Assembly (NCBI GenBank): GCA_016928155.1
Contig: JAFGLG010000015.1
Coordinates: 1 to 47,071, forward strand
Source of the DNA: Candidatus Woesearchaeota archaeon
GTDB taxonomy: Archaea; Nanobdellota; Nanobdellia; Woesearchaeales; JAFGLG01
Length of the DNA: 47,071 nt
Direction: 5' to 3'
The notes under the pieces were generated by a model. It was given only the letters and a program-made list of their open reading frames with translations, did not search any database and was not told the DNA's origin. The position numbers and the translations under genes were made by a program. Position 1 is the stretch's first letter, and the number at the start of each line of letters is the position of its first letter. Below, piece by piece: positions 1 to 22,070 of this stretch.

Positions 1-3000
1 CAGATTCATATGTGCTGTCCCAACTGACATTGGCAGCAATCGTCGCATTCTCATCAACACAGACAACAAAAGTCACAGTATCAGACTTATTATAAGTGTC
101 ATCTGAGGGCTCTACCACACCAAACACAGGAGCATCAGTATCAATAATAGTATTAGCGAGTGTCTTATTGACATTGCTCACATCTGTATCATTGATATTT
201 CCATCATGATCAACAGTATGGATTGTGATCTCATAATACGCATCAGGCATCAACCCGGTCAAGTTATAATAATTGACTGGAGCAGACAAGTTAGCCACCC
301 AACTACCATTAATAAAGATTACAGTACCATTAAAGTCAGCATCAGCAGGATTACTCCAATTCCAATAGATGCTCGAATTAGTCTGACTTGGAGACATCAG
401 ATTACTGACAGAACTTGGTGGAACAATATCAGGATTCTCCAAAGTCTTATTGGTATCATTCACACCAGTTGTATTCACATTACCCACATGATCAATGGTA
501 TATATAGTAATGGTATGATTGGTATCAGGAGTCAAACCAGTTTTATTATAATAGTTTACAGGAACAGAAAGATTTATCTCCCAAACATTGTCGATATATA
601 TCATAGTACTATTAAAATCCAAATCAATTGGATTAACCCAATTCCAGAAAATACTCGTATTCGTCTGACTTGGAGACCCAAGATTCAAAACAGATCCTGG
701 CGGAATCTCATCAGCAAGCTCCTGGACTGTAAAATTTGTAAAAGTGATATTCCAATTCCCATATTCATCAGTAGCATTGAAACTGATATTATAAACACCA
801 ATCCAAGTAGTATTAGTAAAGATATACTCATAGCACCACTCAGTACCATTGTACTCGAGGATTGCCTGTTCATGTGTGCTGTCCCAGGTGATGTTCGCTG
901 TGACAGTGGAGTTCTCACTTACGCACACGATCACATGAACACTGTCAGACTGATTGAATACATCATCATTCGGTTCAACAAGGCTGAATAGTGGAGGAAA
1001 CATATCCCCGACAGTGAAGACAGCGGTCTCTGAATCATTCACATTGCTTGCATTGTCTGTGGCTATGATTCTTATTGTGTATATATCTATGCTTGTTGTG
1101 TTGGTGAATACTCCTCCCCATAGTCCAGATGTTGCATTGTAGGAAAGATTGATCATTTCATAGGTTGGACCCCAACTCACATTGGCAACCACTATGCCCA
1201 TATTATCATAATAGGCATCAGTCACATTTGCTGATATGTACACAGAATCATTTATATCATAATTTGCTCCATCAGGGTTTACATCAGGCACGCTTGGTGC
1301 TGTCACATCATTTACTGTGAAATTTGCATGAGTCACATTCCAGTTTCCGTTGCCGTCAGTCGCATTGTAGGTAATGTTATACTGTCCGAGTGCGTATGTC
1401 TGGCTGAATATTGCAGCATAATACCAATCTGTTCCATTATGGCTCAGGCTTATCTTCTGCTGGCTCCCATTTGGATAATCTAATGTTGCTGAGACTGTGG
1501 CGCTTTCATCTATTGATACCAGGAAGAGCACATCATCGCTCTGATTGTACTCTCCGCTTGGTCTTGTCTCTGATTCATTGAATACAGGTGCATCATGGTC
1601 TGGCGAAGTGCCGGTCCTGACTGTATCGATCACCCAGGTTGTGTTTATGTTGCCTGAATGGTCAGCAGTGAGTATTGAAATAGTATAATCAGTATTGTTT
1701 ATCAGCCCGCTGAAATTCACTGAATTGACAGGTGTATTTAGGTTTGCCTGCCATATCCAATTAAGGTATATTATTGTATGGTTGAAGTCGACATCCGGTG
1801 GGTTTGTCCATGTCCAATATATCCAGCTGGTTCCGATAGAGGGAGCATTGAGATTTGTGACAGTTCCTGGTGGATAAGGGTCATAGAGGCTGTTGACATA
1901 GAACCAGCTTCCCTCGCTGTCGTTCATGTTTCCATTCATGTCTTGTGAATATATTTTATACGTGTAATTGCCAGGGATATATGAGGGAGTTGTATTGAAC
2001 ACATAATACCATATATTGCTGTTGTTGCTCATTGTATAATTCTTGACAGTCCCATTGGCAAATATTACTTCAACCAATGTGAAATTTATCCGATGATCAT
2101 CAGTTATGTTTGCTGTCAGGTTTGTGTATTGCGTCTGGTTGATGAGATATGGCACTGACCAAACTGAAACCACACTTGGTGGGGTATAGTCAGCTATTGT
2201 CCCTGTCCTTGCTGTATTGATCACCCAGGTTGTGTTGACATTCCCATCATGGTCAACTGTGAGTATTGCTATGGTGTAGTCTGTGTTGTTGAGCAGTCCT
2301 GTTATGTTGACTGAATGTACTGGTGTGTATAAGTTTGCTTGCCACATCCAGTTAACATATATCATGGTATGGTTGAAGTCAGCGTCAGAAGGATTGGTCC
2401 AGTTCCATCGTATCCAGCTTGTGCCTATGCTTGTTGCATGGAGATTGGTGATAGTTCCGGGTGGGCTGTTATTTGAGATGTCATTCACATAAAACCAGCC
2501 CCATTCGCTGTCATTGACATTCCCCACCCGATCATATGCATATATCCTGTAGGTATAATTTCCAGGCAGATGATCCTCAGTTGTATTGAACACATAATAC
2601 CATATGTTTGAGTTGTTGCTCAGGGTATAATTCTTTACAGTCCCATTGGCAAAGCTTACTTCAACAAGAGTGAAATTGATCCCTGATTCGTCTGTTATGT
2701 TTGCTGTCAGGTTTGTGTATTGCGTCTGGTTGATGATATATGGATTTGACCAGACAGAAAGCACAGATGGGGCCTCATGGTCGCCCATTGTATTGTTGAC
2801 TGTGAAATAAGCATCTGATGCATCACAGCTGGAATCATAGGGATCATATGCACAGACCCTGATGAGCGATTGCATATTGTCATTCGCTGTTGTGGTGTCC
2901 CACAATAAGCTTCGAGTTGAGTTGCTGAGCCCGCCCTGTATGAGATAGAAGTTTGATCCGCCGTCAGGTGATTGGTAGACATTGAATGTCAGGCTGTCTT

Positions 3001-5149
3001 CATTTATGTCTGATGCATTCCAGTGTATTGTCTGCAATCCACCCCAGTCTTCGCCTCCGTTCGGCACAGTGACTGTGACATTCGGGGGTGCATTTACATG
3101 GAAATATGACCTGGTTATCTCTGCACTTCCAGGAGAGGAATAGATGACAAGTGTCCATTGCCCGAATATTGCTGTTAAATTGAGCAGATAATCGTCTTGC
3201 GCCTGACCGCCTGCATCTACATTTATTGTCGGGCTTGTCCTCTGGACTGTGGCATTCGGGTCTATCCATTGGAAGAATACCTTTCCTGTGCCCTGCAGGC
3301 CATACGCTTCTGCATAGACCCTCTCGTTCCTTTTATAGTACTGGTCAACGTTTGTCCTTCCTGAATCATTGAATACGAGCATGTAGTATGCTGTTGTGTT
3401 GTCCATCACGAGGTCGGAATGGTCTGGATCAAGTGAGGATGTCGCCTGTATATAAGTAAGTTCAGATGTGCCGTCTGTTGCATCAGATGGCACTGAGAGC
3501 TTAACATAGATGTTCTTGGATTCCCCATATGGACCGATTGGTCCTGTGTCTATCATGGAGTCAGAATTTGTGTCTGTGAGCTCTGTTATCTTATCCTCTT
3601 CATAGAATGTCGCTGTCCAGCCGAGTGTCCCTGTCCAGTTCAGGTTTAAGATATCAGACTCATTGTAAGAGTTTGTCACATTGTGCCTGTAGTAGATATA
3701 TGAGCCCACGCCTGCTTTTCCGCTCTCATTCTTCTGTATCTGGATCCTTTCATCTATTGTGGCCTTGTCTTGGACATTTGCATGTATCGACAGGTTGCTG
3801 GAGAAGTTTGCATAGATTGTGAATGTGTTGGATGTGGATAGATCAGCACCTGAAGGCACTTCAACAACTAACAGGAAGTCCTTGCTCTCTCCTGAGCTTA
3901 GGTTGCCGAAATCTGCGATCCCGTCGCTGTCTGTATCATCTATCTCTGTTCCGTTAGGATATCTCAGGGCATAGTTCCAGTCTGATGTCTGCTTGACTGC
4001 AACTTCAACCACATCTGGGTCATTCAGGTTCATGACTGTATGGGTATAGGTTATGCTTGCTCCGCTCGAGATCAAATAATCATGCTGGTTAAGGAGTATG
4101 AGTGTGCCTATTGTTGTTATGTCTTCTACTGTGTCATAGAGAGATGGGGTGATGCTGGATGTTGCTTTGATTGTTGTGTCATCGCTTATGCCATTGTCCT
4201 CATCGGCTGGGATTGTGAAATTTACATATATTGTCTTGGTCTCTCCTGCATTCATTATCAGATCCGCTTTGCCGTCAAGGTCTGAATCAGTGAGTTCATT
4301 CCATGAATCATCATATATTGTCACATTCCATCCTGCTCTTGTTCCTATCGCTTCTATGTCGATTGTATCGATATCATTCCCGAAGTTTGTCACATTATGG
4401 ATATAAGTTATTGTTGTATTGGCCTTTGCTCCCTTGTTCTGGCTTGCTTCTATGTCTACTCCAGCATACCGGCTTGATATGTTTCCGGCATTGTCTTCCA
4501 CTGCTGACGGAAGGTTTGTTCCTTTTCTTCCTGATGATATGTGGAATCTCAATGGGGTTCCGCTTGTGGCGCCTAAATCCTCCCACTTGTAGCTCACCTC
4601 AACCTGAAGCCCGTCTGCACTGCATGGATCAAATGTCGCATCATTGACTTCATTTGTCACTCCGCCTGGCATTGAATATCCATCTCCCATTATCATATCC
4701 GGTGTGCCTCCTGTTGGCGCATAATCATGCAGGCTATCGACGCATTTCTTGTTCTGTCCGTCGAATTCTATCCTTGCAACTTTGTCTGTTGAGTTCATGT
4801 ATCCATCATTGTCAAGGTCCATATAGACCAGGAACTGGGCTACATTGTTGCTTCCGGCATTTCTCTTGAAATAGTAGAATACATGAGTTGAGTTCCATGT
4901 GTATGCCCATTTTATCATATCCTTGTCTGCTGACTGTATTGTTGGGTAGTCAAGATCACCCATTGCTTCTATGAGGTCTATGACATAATTTTCAGGATAC
5001 CCGAGTATCCCGGACCAGTCTGACAAGTCTCCATCAATCACAATGGTTTTCTGTGCAGGAGGTTGTGAGCAGACAACAGTGGCCAGAGCTGTTGCTAAGA
5101 TGATCATGGTCAGTATGATGCTCATTCCTCTAGCTCTTCTTCTCTTCAT
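1..5149 (-). CDS. Giant secreted multi-domain surface protein (3' end outside window)
   Basis: The reading frame stays open from the ATG at 5149 to the window edge, giving at least 1,716 residues. The start MKRRRARG is followed by a hydrophobic stretch to about residue 26 and a Cys at 27, so it is a signal peptide, possibly with a lipobox. A domain opening with IDGDLSDW (about residues 34-210) resembles CBM9/DOMON-like sugar- or haem-binding modules. Three CARDB/NEW-like beta domains of about 115 residues follow (about nt 4440-3480), then an Ig-like domain with a PNGGEDW motif, then alternating Ig-like and fibronectin-III-like modules to the edge. Asn-X-Ser/Thr sequons are very frequent, which suits an N-glycosylated cell-surface protein. 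Function is probably adhesion or host contact; this is inference. No cell-wall anchor can be judged because the C terminus is missing. Confidence 0.85.
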   Translation of the reverse strand, partial: MKRRRARGMSIILTMIILATALATVVCSQPPAQKTIVIDGDLSDWSGILGYPENYVIDLIEAMGDLDYPTIQSADKDMIKWAYTWNSTHVFYYFKRNAGSNNVAQFLVYMDLDNDGYMNSTDKVARIEFDGQNKKCVDSLHDYAPTGGTPDMIMGDGYSMPGGVTNEVNDATFDPCSADGLQVEVSYKWEDLGATSGTPLRFHISSGRKGTNLPSAVEDNAGNISSRYAGVDIEASQNKGAKANTTITYIHNVTNFGNDIDTIDIEAIGTRAGWNVTIYDDSWNELTDSDLDGKADLIMNAGETKTIYVNFTIPADEDNGISDDTTIKATSSITPSLYDTVEDITTIGTLILLNQHDYLISSGASITYTHTVMNLNDPDVVEVAVKQTSDWNYALRYPNGTEIDDTDSDGIADFGNLSSGESKDFLLVVEVPSGADLSTSNTFTIYANFSSNLSIHANVQDKATIDERIQIQKNESGKAGVGSYIYYRHNVTNSYNESDILNLNWTGTLGWTATFYEEDKITELTDTNSDSMIDTGPIGPYGESKNIYVKLSVPSDATDGTSELTYIQATSSLDPDHSDLVMDNTTAYYMLVFNDSGRTNVDQYYKRNERVYAEAYGLQGTGKVFFQWIDPNATVQRTSPTINVDAGGQAQDDYLLNLTAIFGQWTLVIYSSPGSAEITRSYFHVNAPPNVTVTVPNGGEDWGGLQTIHWNASDINEDSLTFNVYQSPDGGSNFYLIQGGLSNSTRSLLWDTTTANDNMQSLIRVCAYDPYDSSCDASDAYFTVNNTMGDHEAPSVLSVWSNPYIINQTQYTNLTANITDESGINFTLVEVSFANGTVKNYTLSNNSNIWYYVFNTTEDHLPGNYTYRIYAYDRVGNVNDSEWGWFYVNDISNNSPPGTITNLHATSIGTSWIRWNWTNPSDADFNHTMIYVNWMWQANLYTPVHSVNITGLLNNTDYTIAILTVDHDGNVNTTWVINTARTGTIADYTPPSVVSVWSVPYLINQTQYTNLTANITDDHRINFTLVEVIFANGTVKNYTMSNNSNIWYYVFNTTPSYIPGNYTYKIYSQDMNGNMNDSEGSWFYVNSLYDPYPPGTVTNLNAPSIGTSWIYWTWTNPPDVDFNHTIIYLNWIWQANLNTPVNSVNFSGLINNTDYTISILTADHSGNINTTWVIDTVRTGTSPDHDAPVFNESETRPSGEYNQSDDVLFLVSIDESATVSATLDYPNGSQQKISLSHNGTDWYYAAIFSQTYALGQYNITYNATDGNGNWNVTHANFTVNDVTAPSVPDVNPDGANYDINDSVYISANVTDAYYDNMGIVVANVSWGPTYEMINLSYNATSGLWGGVFTNTTSIDIYTIRIIATDNASNVNDSETAVFTVGDMFPPLFSLVEPNDDVFNQSDSVHVIVCVSENSTVTANITWDSTHEQAILEYNGTEWCYEYIFTNTTWIGVYNISFNATDEYGNWNITFTNFTVQELADEIPPGSVLNLGSPSQTNTSIFWNWVNPIDLDFNSTMIYIDNVWEINLSVPVNYYNKTGLTPDTNHTITIYTIDHVGNVNTTGVNDTNKTLENPDIVPPSSVSNLMSPSQTNSSIYWNWSNPADADFNGTVIFINGSWVANLSAPVNYYNLTGLMPDAYYEITIHTVDHDGNINDTDVSNVNKTLANTIIDTDAPVFGVVEPSDDTYNKSDTVTFVVCVDENATIAANVSWDSTYES
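1610..2790 (-). repeat. 591-bp tandem duplication inside the giant surface gene
   Basis: Two copies of an Ig-like plus FN3-like module pair lie head to tail. The same string is found at 2111-2120 and 2702-2711, an offset of 591 bases or exactly 197 codons. The FN3 half is repeated around 1620-1890 and 2210-2470. Copies differ mostly by point changes, so the duplication is recent compared with the more diverged modules at 1-1600. Confidence 0.75.
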
Positions 5150-11994: not shown

Positions 11995-12081
11995 GCCCGA
12001 TTAGCTCAGCGGTTAGAGCGCGTGGCTGTTATCCGTAAGGAAAGATACCACGAGGTCGCAGGTTCAAATCCCGCATCGGGC
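11995..12081 (+). tRNA. tRNA-Asn (GTT) with 15-nt anticodon-loop intron
   Basis: The seven-base acceptor arms pair perfectly (GCCCGAT/ATCGGGC). The D arm is GCTC/GAGC, the anticodon stem CGTGG/CCACG, and the loop reads CTGTTA before an insert. The intron is 12032-12046, at canonical position 37/38, leaving a normal 72-nt tRNA. The T arm has TTCAAAT with one A-C mismatch in its stem. A TATA-like TTTATAAAG lies about 35 bases upstream. Confidence 0.93.
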
Positions 12082-12084
12082 GTT

Positions 12085-12119: not shown

Positions 12120-12240
12120 GGGCCCGTAGCTTAGTCTGGCTGGAGCGTACGACTGATATCGCAATTGGCAGATATCGTAAGGTCCCGAGTTCAAATGCCT
12201 GGCTGCGAGAGTAGTCATGCTGGATGTCTCGGCGGGCCCA
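12120..12240 (+). tRNA. tRNA-Ile (GAT) with two introns, one in the T loop
   Basis: Acceptor GGGCCCG pairs with CGGGCCC at 12233-12239. The anticodon stem TACGA/TCGTA closes loop CTGATA-A once the 15-nt intron 12159-12173 (position 37/38) is removed. The T stem CCGAG (12185-12189) pairs with CTCGG (12228-12232), but 31 nt (12196-12226) interrupt the T loop at position 59/60. Around it a bulge-helix-bulge can be drawn: T stem, then TTCA paired with TGGA, three-base bulges AAT and TGT, then a short intron helix. Cutting each bulge after its second base restores the T loop TTCAAAT and a standard archaeal tRNA-Ile. Confidence 0.92.
12196..12226 (+). other. Non-canonical tRNA intron (T loop, 59/60)
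   Basis: The 31-nt insert lies between TTCAAA (54-59) and T60. The flanking bases form a near-ideal BHB: 4-bp central helix TTCA/TGGA and two 3-nt bulges on opposite strands. Introns at this site are known from Thermoproteales and a few other archaea, and need a splicing endonuclease tolerant of non-anticodon sites. Confidence 0.85.
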
Positions 12241-14256: not shown

Positions 14257-14373
14257 TGAGTGCAAAATAATCATTTCAGCCGATATACGATGAAGTCCCA
14301 AAAATTTAAAAAGGATTTGCCTACCCTGTAGATGGTAATTTGGGGGTATAGCACACAAGGAGCGTGTTTCGCA

Positions 14374-14703
14374 ATGGACCATATACTTAATGACATTCGG
14401 AAATCAGAGGATAATGCAAAGAAGATTATTGAAGATGCATTGAAAGAGAAGGAGAAGATCATCTCTAAGGCAAGGGCAGATGCGATTGATATCATCAAGG
14501 AGAATGACAGGCGCATGTCCAGGGAGAGGGATGATGAGATAAAGGAATACAGGAAATCAATCCTTGCCAAGCAGAAAGAGGTCACAGAGAAAGGCAGGAA
14601 GAAGACCCGTGATATTGAGAAGTCTTCCGGGAAGAATGTCGATAGGACGAAGAAGCTCCTGCTCCAGGAATTTCATGGTTTTATAGAACAAGAGATGATG
14701 TAG
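14374..14703 (+). CDS. atpH: A-type ATP synthase subunit H (peripheral stalk)
   Basis: From the ATG at 14374 the product is 109 residues of continuous coiled coil (IRKSEDNAKKIIEDALKEKEKIISKARADAIDIIKEND). AAGGAG 11 bases upstream fixes this start rather than the earlier GTG at 14332. Subunit H pairs with E to form the peripheral stalks. It opens the atpHIKECFAB-carbonic anhydrase-atpD operon. An AT-rich promoter-like ATTTAAAAAG lies near 14303. Confidence 0.88.
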   Translation: MDHILNDIRKSEDNAKKIIEDALKEKEKIISKARADAIDIIKENDRRMSRERDDEIKEYRKSILAKQKEVTEKGRKKTRDIEKSSGKNVDRTKKLLLQEFHGFIEQEMM

Positions 14704-16569
14704 ATGTTCAAGGCTTTACGCATGTCAAAGGTGACGATAATCGGTCACAAGGACCACCTCCCTTCTGTGCTGAATGTGCTTCACCGGATGAAGGTCTTCC
14801 ATATTGTCGAGCAGAGGAAGGAAGGCATCGATATCGGCAAGCCTTTGGAGTATGGTGAGAGGCTTTCTGAGATACTTATCAAGCTGAGGTCTGTGGCCTC
14901 TTATCTGGGCATCGATCTCAGTGAGAACGGGATTGAGGATCTCAAGGATGAGAAGCTGGATTATTACAAGCTTGGCAATCTCAGCAAGAAGCTGTATCTC
15001 ATTGTCACAGACAAGGTCAATGAGAAGAAGGCCGCAGAAGACAAGATAAAGTCCCAGAGGATAAGGCTCCATCAGCTCAAGATCCTGAACTGCCTCGGCC
15101 TTGATCCTATCGATGTCAGGGAGAGCTTAAATTATGATTATTTCATCGGCTACCCCCAGGAGTTCAAGAAGTTCGAGGAGCTCTTGACAGAGAGGTTCAA
15201 GGATATCTATATGAAGAAAGGTATCCTCAATAGGGGATCCTATTTTGGGATATTTGCGCCTAAGCATCTCTCTCAGGACATCCAGAATTTCCTGAATGAG
15301 TTCTCTTTTGTTTATCAGGAGTTCAGGGAGATATCGGATATCCGGGATGAGACCCATAAAGCTCTGAAGGACATCAACAGCGATCTTTCAGAGATTGAGA
15401 AGCAGAGGGATTCAATTGAGTTTGAGCTCCATGATCTAGGCAGGAAGTGGAAGAAGTTCATCTTGTTCAATGAGACTCTTGTCTCACAGGAGGCAGAGAA
15501 GGCAGAGGCCCCTCTCAGGTTGGGGACCACAGATGAGACTTTTATTGCCACAGGATGGATTCCGGCATGGAAACTCACCAAGACAGTCAGGGCTCTTGAG
15601 GATTGCGCAGATAATCGGCTTTTCATAGAGACCCACAAGGTGGACAAGCATGATGATGTGCCTATAGAGCTGCAGAATCCCAAGGTGGTGAAGCCATTCG
15701 AGTTCTTCATGGACCTGTACACCCTGCCGCAGTATTATGAGCTTGATCCGTCTTTCCTTTTCTTCCTTACATTCCCTTTCTTCTTCGGCTTCATGCTAGG
15801 TGATATCGGCTACGGGATCACGACTCTTGTGCTCTTCATCGCCCTGAGGGCCATGATGAAGGATGGCAGGCGCCTGATAGACGCCCTGATCTTCTCATCC
15901 CTGTCCACGATCTTCTTCGGTGCGCTGTTCGGCGAGTTCTTCGGTGCAGAGGTTGTCATGGGCTATGAGCTTCCTCATGTGCTCAGCAGGATGCATCAGA
16001 TAAATGAGCTCCTGTATGTCTCTGTCATGCTTGGATTCCTGCATCTGAACCTTGGCCTCTTGATCGGTTTCATAAATGAGTGCAAGCATCATGGATTGAA
16101 GACAGCGGTTCTTGAGAAAGGGAGCTGGTGGATTCTTCAGCTTTCAGTCATCGTCCTTGCACTGTCATACTTGAAGCTTATCCCCCTGATGCCCTTGGTG
16201 GGTTATGTCATGCTTGCTCTCTCTGCCGTGATGCTTTATGCTGGCGAAGGTGCTAGGGGCTTGATTGAGATGCCGGCCATATTTTCCAACATGTTCTCCT
16301 ATGCCAGGCTTATGGCTATCGGCGTTGCTTCAGCTTCATTGGCTATTGTTGTCAATGATTTCTCTTTCAGGATGTTCCATGGCGGCATCATCTCCATCAT
16401 CGGTGGTATATTGATACTTTTGCTTGGGCATTCCATCAATATTGGGTTGGGCATACTTGGCCCTTTCCTTCATTCGCTCAGGCTGCATTATGTTGAGTTT
16501 TTTTCGAAGTTTTATCACGGCGGAGGCCTCAGGTTCATGCCTTTCGGTGGCAAGAAGGAGGAGGCTTGA
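14704..16569 (+). CDS. atpI: A-type ATP synthase subunit I (a-type membrane stator)
   Basis: The 621-residue protein has a cytoplasmic coiled-coil N-terminal half and about seven to eight C-terminal membrane helices. The essential membrane Arg lies in MFSYARLMAIGVA, and the family signature FFFGFMLGDIGYGI is present. It forms the ion half-channels against the K ring. The ATG directly follows the atpH stop (TAG ATG). Confidence 0.96.
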   Translation: MFKALRMSKVTIIGHKDHLPSVLNVLHRMKVFHIVEQRKEGIDIGKPLEYGERLSEILIKLRSVASYLGIDLSENGIEDLKDEKLDYYKLGNLSKKLYLIVTDKVNEKKAAEDKIKSQRIRLHQLKILNCLGLDPIDVRESLNYDYFIGYPQEFKKFEELLTERFKDIYMKKGILNRGSYFGIFAPKHLSQDIQNFLNEFSFVYQEFREISDIRDETHKALKDINSDLSEIEKQRDSIEFELHDLGRKWKKFILFNETLVSQEAEKAEAPLRLGTTDETFIATGWIPAWKLTKTVRALEDCADNRLFIETHKVDKHDDVPIELQNPKVVKPFEFFMDLYTLPQYYELDPSFLFFLTFPFFFGFMLGDIGYGITTLVLFIALRAMMKDGRRLIDALIFSSLSTIFFGALFGEFFGAEVVMGYELPHVLSRMHQINELLYVSVMLGFLHLNLGLLIGFINECKHHGLKTAVLEKGSWWILQLSVIVLALSYLKLIPLMPLVGYVMLALSAVMLYAGEGARGLIEMPAIFSNMFSYARLMAIGVASASLAIVVNDFSFRMFHGGIISIIGGILILLLGHSINIGLGILGPFLHSLRLHYVEFFSKFYHGGGLRFMPFGGKKEEA

Positions 16570-16610
16570 GCCTCAAGCAGGATAGAAAAACAGAATACGG
16601 AGGTAAAAAA

Positions 16611-16841
16611 ATGGTAGTTGATATGGGAACTGGTGTTATTGCATTGAGCGCAGCAGTGGCGATCGGTTTGAGTGCTTTTGCAGCAGCTTATGCAGAGAAG
16701 ACAATCGGCGCCGCAGCAGTGGGTGCAATGGCTGAGAAGGAATCTCTTTTCGGTAAGGGCCTTATCCTGACAGTCATTCCAGAGACGATCGTCATCTTCG
16801 GTCTGGTGGTTGCCATACTGATAATTGGGATGGCAGGTTAA
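16611..16841 (+). CDS. atpK: A-type ATP synthase subunit K (proteolipid rotor ring)
   Basis: The start at 16611 has GGAGGT eight bases upstream; an in-frame TTG at 16566 would overlap atpI and add a charged, non-conserved leader. The 76-residue product is one hairpin of two membrane helices, with the ion-binding Glu in PETIVIFGLV of helix 2. TM1 is unusually Ala/Gly rich and has no Gln, which may argue against sodium binding, but specificity cannot be settled by reading. Confidence 0.95.
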   Translation: MVVDMGTGVIALSAAVAIGLSAFAAAYAEKTIGAAAVGAMAEKESLFGKGLILTVIPETIVIFGLVVAILIIGMAG

Positions 16842-16868
16842 TAACCATTCCTTGGTTCGGTGGATACT

Positions 16869-17414
16869 ATGGGATTGGAGAAGGTGAAGAAGGATATCTT
16901 GGAGAAGGCCAAGAAGAGGGCGCAGGATATCCTTAAGGATGCAGAGAAGGAGGCGGAAGCCATCAGGCAGAAGGCCAGGTCTGACGTCATGGATTCCAGG
17001 AGGAGGTCGAAGCAGGAGGTGCTCAAGGTCTGTGAAATCATGGAGAAGAAGGAGCTCTCTTCTGCGGAGTTTGACTCCAAGAAGGATTACCTTGACAAGA
17101 AGAAGGAGATGATCGACCTGGTCTTTGCAGAGGCCATGGCAGAGCTGGCTGCATTGAAGGGGAAGGAACGCAAAGATATCCTGCAGAAGCTGATAGACAG
17201 GGCGAAGAAGAAGGTGGATATCGGAAGGATATACGCGAACAAGGACGACCTGAAGCTGATCAGCGGTTTTGACACAGAGGAGAGGAAGATCGACGGCGGC
17301 ATCATTGTCGAGGACAGGGAAGGCAATGTCACGATAGACCTCACTTTTGAAACACTGCTCGCTGATGTTCAGGAGAGGAACATCCAGAAGATGGCTCAGA
17401 GCCTGTTCAGCTAA
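16869..17414 (+). CDS. atpE: A-type ATP synthase subunit E (peripheral stalk)
   Basis: The protein has 181 residues: an N-terminal basic coiled coil (KVKKDILEKAKKRAQDILKDAEKEAEAIRQKA) and a C-terminal globular domain ending GGIIVEDREGNVTIDLTFETLLADVQE, the classic subunit E signature. The ATG at 16869 has GGTGGA six bases upstream; a GTG at 16860 is possible. It forms the stalk heterodimer with AtpH. Confidence 0.93.
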   Translation: MGLEKVKKDILEKAKKRAQDILKDAEKEAEAIRQKARSDVMDSRRRSKQEVLKVCEIMEKKELSSAEFDSKKDYLDKKKEMIDLVFAEAMAELAALKGKERKDILQKLIDRAKKKVDIGRIYANKDDLKLISGFDTEERKIDGGIIVEDREGNVTIDLTFETLLADVQERNIQKMAQSLFS

Positions 17415-17415
17415 G

Positions 17416-18480
17416 ATGGCAAAGATAAAGCTCAGCACTTATCCGTACACTTATGTGAGGGTTGTCGCTATGCGCAGCAAGCTCCTTTCTAAGGATGATT
17501 ATCATAAGCTGGTGAGGATGAAGCTGGGTGAGATTGCCAGGTACCTGCAGGAATCCGAATACAAGCGGGAGATTGATGAGCTTGGTATAAAATTCTCCGG
17601 TGCTTTTCTGCTTGAGCTTGCGATACATAGGAATCTTATCAGGAATTTCCAGAAGCTGAGGCGGATCTCGAATGTGTCCAGCAACGAGCTTCTGCTCTTG
17701 ATAGACAACTATCTGGTCAGGAGCGACATCTGGAATATCAAGACTGTCCTCAGGGCAAAGTTCACAGGCATCTCTGAAGCAGAGCTCCTGAATATCATCC
17801 TGCCGATAGGAAAGTTATCAGAGGAACACCTGATATCCCTTTTCAGGAAGGACTCTGTTGAGGAGATAATTAAGTCTGTTGATTTCATCAAGTTCAAGGC
17901 CATTAAGCCTGCACTGGATTATTTCAGGGAGAAGAAGAGCTTCTTGGAGATAGAGAATTTTTTGGATAAGTATTATTACTCCCAGATCATCGCTTTTGCT
18001 CAGAAGATCCCTAAGGAGGGGGAGCTTTTCAGGGAATTCCTCATGAATGAGATATTTATCCAGAACACCATCACTGTACTGAGGATGAAGAGGTCTAATA
18101 TAAAGCCTGAAGATATAAGGAATTTCATCATCATGACTGGAGAGAGGTCATTTGACCGTCCGATAGAGAAGTTGTTGAGGTCTGAGAATTTTGAGGAGAT
18201 GATATCTGGCCTTGAGAAGTCCAAGTTCGGCAATTATATCAAGGAAGGGTTGAGGATGTATAAGGAGAAGATGACGCTTGTCTATCTTGAGGCTGATTTC
18301 ATGAAGTATCTGCTCAAGAGATCCGCTCTCTTACTGCACCAGAACCCGCTCAGTGCATCGGTGATCTTGGGCTACATGATGGCTAAGGAAATAGAGGTCA
18401 AGAATATTGGCACAATCATCAAGGGGAAGGAGCTCGGATTGAGCGATGAGTTTGTGGAGAATTCATTGGTGATTGCATAA
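17416..18480 (+). CDS. atpC: A-type ATP synthase subunit C (central stalk, V-type d homologue)
   Basis: The ATG at 17416, just after the atpE stop, gives 354 residues, the normal length. Features are YPYTYVRVVAMRSKLL at the N terminus, LLLLIDNYLVRSDIWNIKTVLRAKF in the middle and GYMMAKEIEVKNIGTIIKGKELGLS near the end. Subunit C couples the K ring to the D/F central shaft. An 85-base spacer, unusual in this tight operon, separates it from atpF. Confidence 0.94.
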   Translation: MAKIKLSTYPYTYVRVVAMRSKLLSKDDYHKLVRMKLGEIARYLQESEYKREIDELGIKFSGAFLLELAIHRNLIRNFQKLRRISNVSSNELLLLIDNYLVRSDIWNIKTVLRAKFTGISEAELLNIILPIGKLSEEHLISLFRKDSVEEIIKSVDFIKFKAIKPALDYFREKKSFLEIENFLDKYYYSQIIAFAQKIPKEGELFREFLMNEIFIQNTITVLRMKRSNIKPEDIRNFIIMTGERSFDRPIEKLLRSENFEEMISGLEKSKFGNYIKEGLRMYKEKMTLVYLEADFMKYLLKRSALLLHQNPLSASVILGYMMAKEIEVKNIGTIIKGKELGLSDEFVENSLVIA

Positions 18481-18565
18481 GCAGCAGGGATGTATATGGC
18501 GATATATAGAACAGGGATGTGCATGGTATACGGCGGGATATATATTATGATCCTAGGGTGATTAT
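18481..18565 (+). other. Intra-operon spacer with imperfect repeat and possible internal promoter
   Basis: CAGGGATGTATATGG and CAGGGATGTGCATGG are near copies about 30 bases apart, each followed by GATATATA-type sequence. The second GATATATATTATG lies some 20 bases before the atpF GTG and could act as an internal TATA box. AGGGTG just before the GTG is the Shine-Dalgarno. Confidence 0.4.
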
Positions 18566-18871
18566 GTGGAGCTGAATGTTGTCGGAGGTTCGGATTTTGT
18601 ATTGGGTTTCCAGCTCTCTGGTATCCAGAAGACCTTTGAGGTCGATGATAGGCAGAAGTGCCTGGATACCATCAACAGTGTGATGGCTGACCCGAATGCA
18701 GGCATACTGATACTTGACGACAAGATATTCCAGTCATTGGCTCCGCATGAGAAAGAGAGGGTTGAGAGGTCTGTCAAGCCGGTTGTGTTGACTCTGTCCA
18801 CGTCGACAGGCCAGGATGCGATGAGGAAGATGATATTGAAATCAATAGGTGTTGATCTATGGAAAGAATGA
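18566..18871 (+). CDS. atpF: A-type ATP synthase subunit F
   Basis: The 101-residue protein has the small Rossmann-like fold expected of subunit F ([33 protein letters not shown]). It starts at GTG: the overlapping ATG at 18564 is in a frame that stops after three codons, and AGGGTG lies at the right distance. The family binds the D subunit in the rotor shaft. Confidence 0.93.
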
Positions 18872-18900
18872 AAAAATCTAAATCAGAAGAAGGCAAAGAT

Positions 18901-20631
18901 ATGGGGATTCTTTATAGGATTGCTGGTCCTGTTGTTGTGGCCAAAGGCCTCAATGCGAGGATGTATGATGTGGTCCGTGTCGGTGACGAGGCCCTTATGG
19001 GTGAAGTCATCCAGATTGACAAGGAGCACACCACTATCCAGGTCTATGAGGATACCTCAGGGATCAAGCCAGGTGAGCCTGTCAGGAACACAGGCAGGCC
19101 CCTTTCCATTGAGCTCGGTCCCGGTCTTCTCACCATGATATACGATGGTATTCAGCGTCCTCTTAAGTTTCTGAGGGACAAGATGGGGGATTACATCCTG
19201 AGAGGCGTGGACGCTCCTGGCCTTGATGAGGCCAAGAAGTGGAAGTTCAAGGCTCTTGTGAAGAAAGGAGACAAGGTAGAGCAGGGTGATGTCATAGGTG
19301 AAGTGCAGGAGACAGAGACTATTGTCCATAGCATCATGGTGCCATACGGCAAGAGCGGCAAGATTGACTCCATCAAGTCCGGGGATTTCAATGTTAACGA
19401 GGCTGTTGGGACACTTGACGACGGCACTGAGCTTTTCCTTAAGCAGTACTGGCCTGTGAGGGTTCCGAGGTACAGTAGGCAGAAGCTTTCCCCAGGCATG
19501 CCCCTGATTACTGGCCAGAGGATCTTTGATGGTCTTTTTCCTCTTGCAAAAGGCGGCGCAGCTGCCATCCCCGGCCCTTTTGGTGCAGGGAAGACAGTAT
19601 CCCAGCAGCAGCTTGCAAAGTGGTGCGACGCTGATATCATTGTATATGTAGGATGCGGCGAGAGAGGCAATGAGATGACTGAGGTATTGACAGAATTCCC
19701 CGAGCTCATCGATCCTAAGACAGGCAAGCCCCTTATGAACAGGACTGTCCTTATCGCTAACACATCAAATATGCCTGTCGCTGCAAGAGAGGCTTCCATC
19801 TATACAGGCATCACGATTGCAGAGTATTATAGGGACATGGGGTATGATGTGGCTTTGATGGCTGATTCCACCTCGAGATGGGCTGAAGCCATGAGGGAGA
19901 TCTCATCGAGGCTTGAGGAGATGCCTGGTGAGGAGGGTTATCCGGCTTATCTGTCGACAAAGCTCTCTGAGTTCTATGAGAGGGCTGGAGTCGTTTCCCC
20001 GTTAGGCAAAGGCCTGGACAATGGCTCTGTGACTGTCATCGGCGCTGTCAGTCCTCCTGGAGGGGATTTTTCAGAGCCTGTCACGCAGAACACGCTCAGG
20101 GTCACCAAGACTTTCTGGGCTCTTGATGCCAAGCTCGCACAGAGGCGTCATTTCCCGTCCATAAACTGGCTCAATTCGTATTCGCTGTATATGGATACAC
20201 TGGCGCCGTGGTTCGCTGAGAACGTTGCCTCTGACTGGAAGCATAATGTGGATAAGATAAGGGCCATACTTCAGGAAGAGGAAAAGCTCATGGAGATTGT
20301 CCAGCTTGTCGGTTCTGATGCTCTGCCTGCCAGGCAGCAGCTGACCCTTGAGGTCGCGAGGCTGATAAGGGAATTCCTGCTCCAGCAGAACGCTTACCAC
20401 GAGGTCGATACTTATTCAGAGCTCAAGAAGACATACACCCTGATGAGGATCATCCTGCATTATTCAAAGATGGCTAATGTAGCCCTTGATAATGGCGCGA
20501 GGGTCCAGCAGCTTCTGGAGATAAAGTCAAAGGACATGATAGCGAATGCTAAGTTCGACAAGGATTATAAGAAGGTCCTTGACGATGTCCAGAAGGAGAT
20601 GGACAAGGAATTCGACAAGATTTACAGGTGA
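18901..20631 (+). CDS. atpA: A-type ATP synthase catalytic subunit A
   Basis: The protein shows Walker [13 protein letters not shown], Walker-B-like [14 protein letters not shown], catalytic [15 protein letters not shown], and the A-subunit-specific bulge domain (about residues 110-190). The start [14 protein letters not shown] aligns with the usual A-subunit N terminus and gives 576 residues. An in-frame ATG at 18859 would add 14 charged residues and overlap atpF. It hydrolyses or makes ATP in the A3B3 head. Confidence 0.97.
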
Positions 20632-20639
20632 TTATGATG

Positions 20640-22070
20640 ATGAAGGAATATAAGACGATTTCGAGGATTGCGGGGCCGCTGGTCTTTGTGAAGAAGACTG
20701 ACCCTGTCGGTTACAATGATCTTGTGAGGATTGCTCTGCCGGGCGGTGTCATGAAGAGCGGTCAGGTGCTGGATACCAGCGAGGATACTGTTGTTGTCCA
20801 GGTGTTCGAAGGAACTTCAGGTATCGACAGGAGCTCATCGATAAAGTTCCTCGGCGAGAACATAAAGCTGAATGTCTCTGATGACATGCTGGGAAGGATC
20901 CTTTCCGGATCCGGCAAGCCCATAGATGGAGGGCCGGCAATAATCCCGGAGAAGAAGCTGGATATCATCGGGGCTGCCATCAACCCTGAAGCCAGGAAGA
21001 GTCCGGCTGATTTCTTCCAGACAGGCATCTCCACCATTGATGCCATGAACACGCTGGTCAGGGGCCAGAAGCTCCCAATTTTCTCAGGCTCTGGTCTGCC
21101 TCACAACAAGATTGCCTTGCAGATTGCGAGGCAGGCGAAGGTCATCGGCCAGGGTGAGGAGTTTGTCGTCATCTTCGCCGCAATGGGCATCACGAATGAA
21201 GAGGCTCAGTTTTTCATCAAGGATTTTGAGGAGACCGGGGCTCTTGAGAGGTCTGTTGTCTTCCTGAATCTCGCGAATGATCCTGCTGTCGAGAGGATTA
21301 TCACCCCGAGGATGGCCTTGACTGCTGCAGAGTATTTTGCTTTTGAGAAGGACAAGCATGTCCTTGTCGTATTGACAGATCTCACAAATTATTGTGAATC
21401 ACTGAGGGAGATTGGCGCTGCCAGGGAAGAGATCCCAGGAAGGAGGGGTTATCCTGGATATATGTATACTGATCTCGCCATGCTTTACGAGAGGGCGGGT
21501 ATGATCAAGGGCAAGAAAGGCTCCATCACTCAGATCCCTATCCTGACCATGATTGGTGATGACATAACTCATCCCATCCCTGACCTTACAGGATATATAA
21601 CCGAAGGCCAGATTGTGCTTAACAGGGAGCTCCACAGGAAAGGCATCTATCCGCCGATTGATGTTCTCCCGTCATTGTCAAGGCTGATGAACAGCGGCAT
21701 AGGCAAGAGCAAGACAAGGGAGGATCATAAGCAGGTGTCTGACCAGCTGTATGCCAACTACGCAGAGGGGAGGGATCTGAGAGGCCTTGTAGCGATTGTC
21801 GGCGAGGAAGCCTTGTCTGCGAGGGATAAGCGGCTGCTTAATTTTGCGAAGATCTTTGAAGAGAGGTTCGTGACACAGGGCAACAGGGAAGACAGGCAGA
21901 TCACTGAAACCCTTTCGCTTGGCTGGGAGCTTCTTGGCACTATCCCTGAGAACGAGCTCACAAGGATAAGCCCTGAGATGAAGAAGAAGTTCTATAAGCC
22001 TATCGCTGCTGATGTCGAAGAGGTCAAGGAGAAGCAGGGGAAGGACGCGGGGGATAAGGGGGAGGAGTGA
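20640..22070 (+). CDS. atpB: A-type ATP synthase regulatory subunit B
   Basis: This is a non-catalytic homologue of AtpA: the P loop is replaced by [18 protein letters not shown], as in all B subunits. [20 protein letters not shown] and [19 protein letters not shown] are family signatures. Three ATGs (20634, 20637, 20640) follow AGGTGA; 20640 gives the best spacing. The C terminus carries an extra charged tail ([18 protein letters not shown]). Confidence 0.97.

What the first reader, a model, noticed from the sequence alone, without database searches (positions are those of the whole stretch)
12120..12240. tRNA-Ile with a second, T-loop intron that forms a clean bulge-helix-bulge
Besides the 15-nt intron at 37/38, 31 nt interrupt the T loop at 59/60. 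The flanks give a T stem, a 4-bp helix TTCA/TGGA and two 3-nt bulges, and cleavage at the usual bulge positions restores a normal tRNA. Such introns are known mainly from Thermoproteales; in a DPANN-like genome they would imply a broad-specificity splicing endonuclease.
Basis: partly seen in the sequence, partly recalled or inferred. Interest (0 to 1): 0.75.

Follow-up and report, generated by a model that had tools for sequence, protein, structure and literature searches.

The report
Archaeal tRNA-Ile gene with T-loop intron
A transfer-RNA gene in an uncultured Woesearchaeales archaeon is interrupted twice, once at the usual place and once inside the T loop, and about half of the tRNA genes recognised in this genome carry the same unusual T-loop interruption although the genome encodes only the simplest form of the intron-cutting enzyme.

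Summary
Window 12120-12240(+) is tRNA-Ile(GAT) with a 15-nt intron at 37/38 (12159-12173) and a 31-nt intron at 59/60 (12196-12226). The T-loop intron forms a strict bulge-helix-bulge (3-4-3) between the T stem and an inner hairpin. Removing both introns gives a 75-nt tRNA that ARAGORN calls tRNA-Ile(gat); it matches an intronless orthologue at 72/75 bases.
This is not an isolated oddity: 18 of about 35 tRNA genes recognised in this genome carry 59/60 introns, and such introns occur in many families of the order Woesearchaeales and in other orders of its class. The motif sits in the expected register in 51 of 59 cases (1.7 expected). No broad-specificity endonuclease is implied: the genome holds one 174-aa single-domain (alpha-type) EndA; no second subunit and no Crenarchaea-type loop were found. 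RtcB is present. Position 59/60 is already known in archaea. What is unusual is the pile-up of introns at a non-canonical position, mostly with the canonical motif, beside an alpha-only enzyme. Splicing itself is inferred; no RNA data were available.

The parts
12120..12240 (+). tRNA-Ile(GAT) gene with two introns (121 nt unspliced, 75 nt spliced)
   Evidence: Sequence; covariance model R1 hit 76 bits, E 1e-16 (the gene is one of the model's 11 training sequences); ARAGORN on the spliced sequence
12120..12158 (+). exon 1: acceptor 5' strand, D arm, anticodon stem 5' strand, positions 32-37 with anticodon GAT
   Evidence: intronless orthologue in G058 identical but for position 17
12159..12173 (+). 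15-nt intron at canonical position 37/38
   Evidence: ARAGORN reports i(40,15); absent from the G058 orthologue
12174..12195 (+). exon 2: position 38 to A59 (T stem 5' strand CCGAG 12185-12189, TTCAAA 12190-12195)
12196..12226 (+). 31-nt intron at 59/60 in the T loop
   Evidence: absent from G058 and 14 other orthologues, present in 7 other tRNA-Ile(GAT) orthologues
12190..12193 (+). TTCA (54-57), exon strand of the 4-bp central helix of the BHB
   Evidence: Pairs with TGGA 12221-12224; register test
12194..12196 (+). 5' bulge AAT; predicted cut after A59 (12195/12196)
   Evidence: BHB geometry (inference from motif)
12197..12220 (+). inner hairpin of the intron (GCCTGGCT...AGTCATGC)
   Evidence: Fold; relative G039 has a 12-bp inner hairpin of different sequence
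12221..12224 (+). TGGA, intron strand of the central helix
12225..12227 (+). 3' bulge TGT; predicted cut 12226/12227
   Evidence: BHB geometry (inference from motif)
12227..12240 (+). exon 3: T60, T stem 3' strand CTCGG, acceptor 3' strand CGGGCCC, A73
11995..12082 (+). neighbouring tRNA-Asn(GTT) with its own 15-nt intron at 37/38 and an intact T loop

Best explanation
This is a functional tRNA-Ile(GAT) gene whose transcript is spliced twice. At the T loop the precursor folds as T stem, 3-nt bulge, 4-bp helix between exon UUCA(54-57) and intron UGGA, 3-nt bulge, and inner hairpin. The genome's single alpha-type EndA, inferred to act as a homotetramer, cuts after A59 and before U60. RtcB joins the exons and probably circularises the 31-nt intron. 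Because the T loop UUCRA is nearly universal, the same exon strand can serve in almost any tRNA, so introns ending YGRA-NG could spread to many isoacceptors without a change of enzyme. Shown: sequence anatomy, register, co-variation at position 57, intronless orthologues, genome-wide recurrence, single EndA, RtcB. Inferred: actual cleavage and ligation, EndA quaternary structure, spread by copying.
For: The spliced product is a normal tRNA-Ile and equals the intronless orthologue at 72/75 sites. 18 T-loop-interrupted tRNA genes in this genome; ARAGORN gives no call for 14 of the unspliced forms, and in 12 of those 14 removing only the T-loop insert yields a tRNA call, 9 of them with the anticodon read by hand. 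Without requiring the central helix, 51 of 59 interrupted tRNAs have all 4 pairs exactly in the BHB register, 0 of 59 one base to either side, 1.7 expected from shuffled introns (max 6 in 300); base 57 co-varies with its intron partner (A-T 32, G-C 17, G-T 3). Acceptor and T-stem pairs were required by that finder, so only central and inner helices count as tests. Inner 3 bp in register: 25 of 57 full against 3.3 expected. T-loop introns occur in at least 8 tRNA-Ile(GAT) orthologues of different genera, plus Lys, Asp, Ala, Arg, Glu, Pro and Leu/Ser-type genes of relatives. One EndA gene of 174 aa, no beta subunit, RtcB E 6.6e-165. EndA lies on contig C17 with four T-loop-intron tRNAs (Arg TCT, Cys, Gly, Gln), so the pairing is not a binning artefact.
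Against: No RNA evidence of splicing. Four of the 18 T-loop introns (Lys, Leu GAG, Glu CTC, Val TAC) have only 3 of 4 central pairs, and the window gene's own 37/38 intron also has 3 of 4, so some tolerance beyond the strict motif may be needed. The alpha4 assembly is inferred from domain architecture. Loci from relatives were partly chosen with a model that contains the BHB helix, which inflates their share of perfect motifs.
Confidence: 0.9

Rival explanations
1. The gene is a pseudogene inactivated by an insertion in the T loop, and Ile AUC/AUU codons are read by another tRNA.
For: Standard finders miss it; ARAGORN calls a GAT anticodon elsewhere, in class-II gene L168.
Against: No second type-I tRNA-Ile(GAT) in a 99.7%-complete genome; all stems intact; insert has BHB geometry with 0.04% chance in shuffles; the same position is interrupted in orthologues with unrelated, self-complementary inner hairpins; 17 other tRNA genes would also be dead.
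Confidence: 0.03
2. The T-loop introns are removed by a broad-specificity endonuclease, from an undetected second subunit or an unrecognised loop in the alpha enzyme, as in Crenarchaeota, N. equitans or ARMAN.
For: Literature links non-canonical introns to (alpha-beta)2, epsilon2 and loop-bearing enzymes (PMC4033280); some introns here have imperfect central helices; the closest solved relative is the N. equitans catalytic subunit, which works with a beta subunit.
Against: Family, protein and beta-subunit profile searches of the genome return only the one gene. The stretch before LSLxEALYL, where the crenarchaeal loop appears to sit, is about one residue longer than in M. jannaschii, whereas that loop is 15-18 residues. 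Most introns are strict BHBs that do not need a broad enzyme.
Confidence: 0.12
3. The tRNA is a split or permuted gene rather than one with an internal intron.
For: Split tRNAs exist in this phylum (N. equitans; PMC4033280).
Against: All three exons are contiguous, in order and on one strand within 121 nt, with no need for trans-splicing.
Confidence: 0.01

Closest known systems
Non-canonical BHB tRNA introns of Thermoproteales (Pyrobaculum, Thermofilum)
   Same: BHB introns outside 37/38, several per gene, many tRNAs affected, similar introns in different isoacceptors of one genome; 59/60 is among listed archaeal positions (PMC4090602, PMC8450103).
   Different: Here the non-canonical introns are concentrated at 59/60 with mostly strict 3-4-3 motifs, and the enzyme is alpha-only without the crenarchaeal loop.
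Multi-intron tRNA genes of ARMAN-1/-2 (Micrarchaeota) with epsilon2 endonuclease
   Same: DPANN-type archaea with non-canonical tRNA introns (PMC4033280).
   Different: EndA here is one catalytic domain of 174 aa, not a three-unit epsilon protein.
tRNA introns and split tRNAs of Nanoarchaeum equitans
   Same: Same broad phylum; closest solved EndA sequence is its catalytic subunit 3iey_A.
   Different: N. equitans uses an (alpha-beta)2 enzyme and split genes; neither was seen here.
Multi-intron tRNAs of Atabeyarchaeia and Freyarchaeia (Asgard)
   Same: Recently reported genomes in which most tRNA genes hold introns, often at non-canonical positions (PMC11291895).
   Different: Different lineage; intron positions and endonuclease type there were not compared.

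Membership tests
Archaeal BHB tRNA intron (strict hBHBh') | 4-bp central helix flanked by two 3-nt bulges on opposite strands | tested here: met
   TTCA/TGGA with AAT and TGT; register test over 59 genes
Archaeal BHB tRNA intron (strict hBHBh') | helix on both outer sides (exon helix and intron helix) | tested here: met
   T stem 5 bp and inner hairpin 7 of 8 bp
Archaeal BHB tRNA intron (strict hBHBh') | removal yields a normal tRNA | tested here: met
   ARAGORN tRNA-Ile(gat); 72/75 identity to intronless orthologue
Archaeal BHB tRNA intron (strict hBHBh') | excised by EndA and exons ligated in vivo | not testable with these tools
   EndA and RtcB genes present; no RNA data
Non-canonical intron position 59/60 | insert lies between tRNA positions 59 and 60 | tested here: met
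   Coordinates; position listed in PMC4090602
Broad-specificity EndA ((alpha-beta)2 or epsilon2) | second structural subunit or three-unit polypeptide | tested here: not met
   One 174-aa gene only; beta profile hits only the same gene, below its cut-off
Broad-specificity EndA ((alpha-beta)2 or epsilon2) | CSL or ASL loop with conserved Lys | tested here: not met
   No loop-sized insertion in alignments to 1a79 and the A. fulgidus entries; the A. pernix CSL region itself was not aligned residue by residue
alpha4-type EndA | single-domain catalytic subunit, about 170-180 aa, Tyr/His/Lys triad | tested here: met
   Full-length alignment to M. jannaschii 1a79 (7-174 to 6-171, E 7.5e-31); NCBIfam endA above cut-off; triad read by eye
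alpha4-type EndA | homotetramer in solution | not testable with these tools
   Not tested

The most novel reading that the evidence does not exclude
Woesearchaeales are a lineage in which T-loop introns multiplied across roughly half of the recognised tRNA genes without any broad-specificity endonuclease. If so, the accepted coupling of EndA type to intron position is really a coupling to motif strictness, and the conserved TTCRA T loop acts as a ready-made landing site for introns that copy between isoacceptors.
Probability: 0.55. Interest if true: 0.65.

Novelty: new variant of a known kind. Interest (0 to 1): 0.5.

Why it matters
Reviews tie non-canonical tRNA introns to endonucleases with relaxed specificity. 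A large, mostly uncultured archaeal order with many introns at one non-canonical position but an alpha-only enzyme separates 'unusual position' from 'unusual motif' and can be tested with one recombinant protein. It also has a practical side: 14 of the 18 unspliced genes get no ARAGORN call and Rfam misses many of them, so tRNA counts and completeness estimates for DPANN genomes made with such tools may be too low.

Tried and rejected
A first pattern for one intron 3' end (TGGATGTC) gave 23 genomes, of which only about 7-8 hits sit inside tRNAs; the rest are chance. A second pattern (YGAAAGTC) matched 242 of 338 genomes; hand-summing its table for the first 60 genomes (one per family) gives about 128 matches against about 46 for the reversed control, so it is enriched but noisy and no per-genome count was taken from it. 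Named genome contigs fetched with EndA held no tRNA that my finder recognised. One apparent T-loop intron of 74 nt in L033, one of 61 nt in L190 (tandem tRNA copies) and a short one in L198 were discarded as artefacts. Chance was rejected for the window gene; pseudogene and split-gene readings were rejected as set out under rivals. Intron similarity between isoacceptors: high in one relative (Pro and Tyr introns of G099, 83% identical outside the ends, a pair picked after the fact) but low in this genome (best 61%; mean between unrelated genomes 44%), so spread by copying is only a lead here.

Full report
What is there. The stretch 12120-12240(+) reads GGGCCCG TA GCTT AGTCTGGCTG GAGC G TACGA CTGATA [TCGCAATTGGCAGAT] A TCGTA AGGTC CCGAG TTCAAA [TGCCTGGCTGCGAGAGTAGTCATGCTGGATG] T CTCGG CGGGCCC A (coordinates asserted). 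The bracketed parts are a 15-nt intron at 37/38 and a 31-nt intron at 59/60. ARAGORN and Rfam at gathering threshold find only the neighbouring tRNA-Asn and a distant tRNA-Gln in the window. Removing the second insert, or both, gives an ARAGORN call of tRNA-Ile with anticodon GAT.

Is it a bulge-helix-bulge? The T stem is followed by TTCA pairing with TGGA, with AAT and TGT as 3-nt bulges and an inner hairpin with 7 of 8 pairs. Shuffling the intron gives the 4-bp helix in register in 3.1% of trials, and that together with an equally good inner helix in 0.04%. The fold of the whole gene has z = -2.95, with the T stem and the inner hairpin formed; the energy model leaves the 4-bp helix open, as expected for a short helix between two bulges. 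The 37/38 intron has a weaker central helix, 3 of 4 pairs by eye.

Empty site. The best DNA matches among same-order genomes include orthologues without a T-loop intron. The one in G058 lacks both introns and is identical to the predicted spliced product at 72 of 75 bases; two of the three differences are one compensatory T-stem pair (A-T to C-G). This fixes the exon boundaries independently of the motif. Among the tRNA-Ile(GAT) genes I could parse, 8 genomes including this one have a T-loop intron and 15 lack it; the sample was chosen by similarity, so the ratio is not a frequency. Three tRNA-Ile genes with a TAT anticodon (G039, G109, G093) also carry one.

Genome-wide. RF00005 found 20 tRNAs above threshold in the genome plus weak partial hits, several of which ended at an interrupted T loop. 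I built a covariance model, R1, from 11 genes with T-loop introns; the window gene is one of them, so its own score is not independent. Searching the genome with R1 and parsing the hits gave 18 genes with 59/60 introns out of about 35 recognised: Ile GAT, Arg TCT, Arg GCG, Cys GCA, Asp GTC, Lys TTT, Ala TGC, Ala GGC, His GTG, Pro TGG, Gly TCC, Glu TTC, Glu CTC, Leu GAG, Gln CTG, Val TAC, and two class-II genes (isotypes read by hand, since ARAGORN misnames a few that hold further introns). A nineteenth parse, in L033, was discarded. In 14 of the 18 the central helix has 4 of 4 pairs, in four it has 3.

Register test. A finder that asks only for acceptor pairs, T-stem pairs and conserved T-loop and D-arm letters, with no demand on the intron, found 59 interrupted T loops among 114 distinct tRNAs in all loci held. 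The exon bases 54-57 pair fully with the intron in 51 of 59 at the offset a 3-nt bulge demands, in 0 of 59 one base to either side, and in 1.7 on average (max 6) when introns are shuffled. The partner of base 57 follows it: A57 with T in 32, G57 with C in 17 and with T in 3. Loci from relatives were largely fetched with R1, which contains this helix, so their proportion of perfect motifs is inflated; the sharp register and the co-variation are less exposed to that. Counts of acceptor, T-stem and central pairs on the model's own alignment are partly true by construction. Most introns end in GAAAG, GGATG or GAATG before T60.

Relatives. EndA relatives with titles place the genome in or near Woesearchaeales. 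R1 hits in other families of the order are T-loop-interrupted tRNAs for Lys, Asp, Ala, Arg, Glu and Ile, and a pattern search adds Glu, Pro, a class-II gene and initiator Met. Other orders of the class also have them (Lys in G381, Ala in G355, G371 and G386). In relative G099 the T-loop introns of Pro and Tyr tRNAs are 83% identical outside the constrained ends, which hints at copying between isoacceptors, as described for Thermoproteales (cited in PMC4033280 and PMC4090602). In the window's own genome no such pair stands out, apart from two near-duplicate class-II genes.

Enzymes. The genome has one EndA: 174 aa, single catalytic domain, full-length alignment to the M. jannaschii enzyme (1a79) and best sequence match to the N. 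equitans catalytic subunit (3iey_A). Searches with the protein at E up to 10 and with a beta-subunit profile return only that gene. Compared with the M. jannaschii and A. fulgidus enzymes it has no insertion of the size of the crenarchaeal loop, 15-18 residues. RtcB is present. EndA lies on contig C17, as do the Arg TCT, Cys, Gly TCC and Gln CTG genes with T-loop introns, so they belong to the same genome.

How it most likely works. EndA recognises the strict BHB and cuts after A59 and before U60; RtcB joins the exons. Shown here: the anatomy, the register, the empty sites, the recurrence and the gene content. Inferred: the cleavage itself, ligation, circular intron, homotetramer, order of the two splicing events. 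Reviews state that alpha4 and alpha'2 enzymes take canonical BHB motifs only and that (alpha-beta)2 and epsilon2 enzymes also take relaxed ones (PMC6379350, PMC4033280). The four T-loop introns and the window's own 37/38 intron with 3 of 4 central pairs leave room for some relaxation.

Novelty. Position 59/60, multiple introns per tRNA and many introns per genome are all known in archaea (PMC4090602, PMC8450103, PMC11291895). I found no paper in the held library that describes T-loop introns in Woesearchaeales; most subscription papers are not held, so this is weak evidence of absence. The unusual element is the combination of a pile-up at one non-canonical position, mostly strict motifs, and an alpha-only endonuclease.

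Noticed in passing
L170 (G000 C5:166300-166413) and L168 (G000 C7:104248-104362); L045 (G000 C7:30146): Class-II tRNA-like genes (long variable arm, G73, Ser-like body) with anticodons GAA (Phe) and GAT (Ile), two of them near-duplicates sharing the same T-loop intron and flanks TTTAGGCAAT...CCTAAAACC. If charged by SerRS they would misread Phe or Ile codons; they may equally be pseudogenes. L168 has an A-C mismatch in the anticodon stem and L045 a mismatch in the T stem.
   Followed up: partly
L037 (G000 C7:188271-188399): Looks like tRNA-Ile with anticodon TAT, with an extra insert in the D loop besides the anticodon-loop intron; it would read AUA without a modified CAT tRNA.
   Followed up: no
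L169 (G000 C4:134-277), L171 (G000 C17:693-843), L041 (G000 C11:48625-48742): Apparent additional introns in the D loop or near 25/26 in Glu CTC, Gln CTG and Ser GGA genes; the first two would then have three introns each.
   Followed up: no
window 2-5149 (-): Open frame of more than 1700 aa with a signal-like start and repeated Asn/Thr-rich beta-type segments, running off the window: probably a large surface protein.
   Followed up: no
window 14332-22070 (+): Apparent archaeal A/V-type ATPase operon, read from ORF sequences only.
   Followed up: no
L264 and L266 (G099): T-loop introns of Pro and Tyr tRNAs in relative G099 are 83% identical outside the ends, a hint of intron copying between isoacceptors.
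   Followed up: partly
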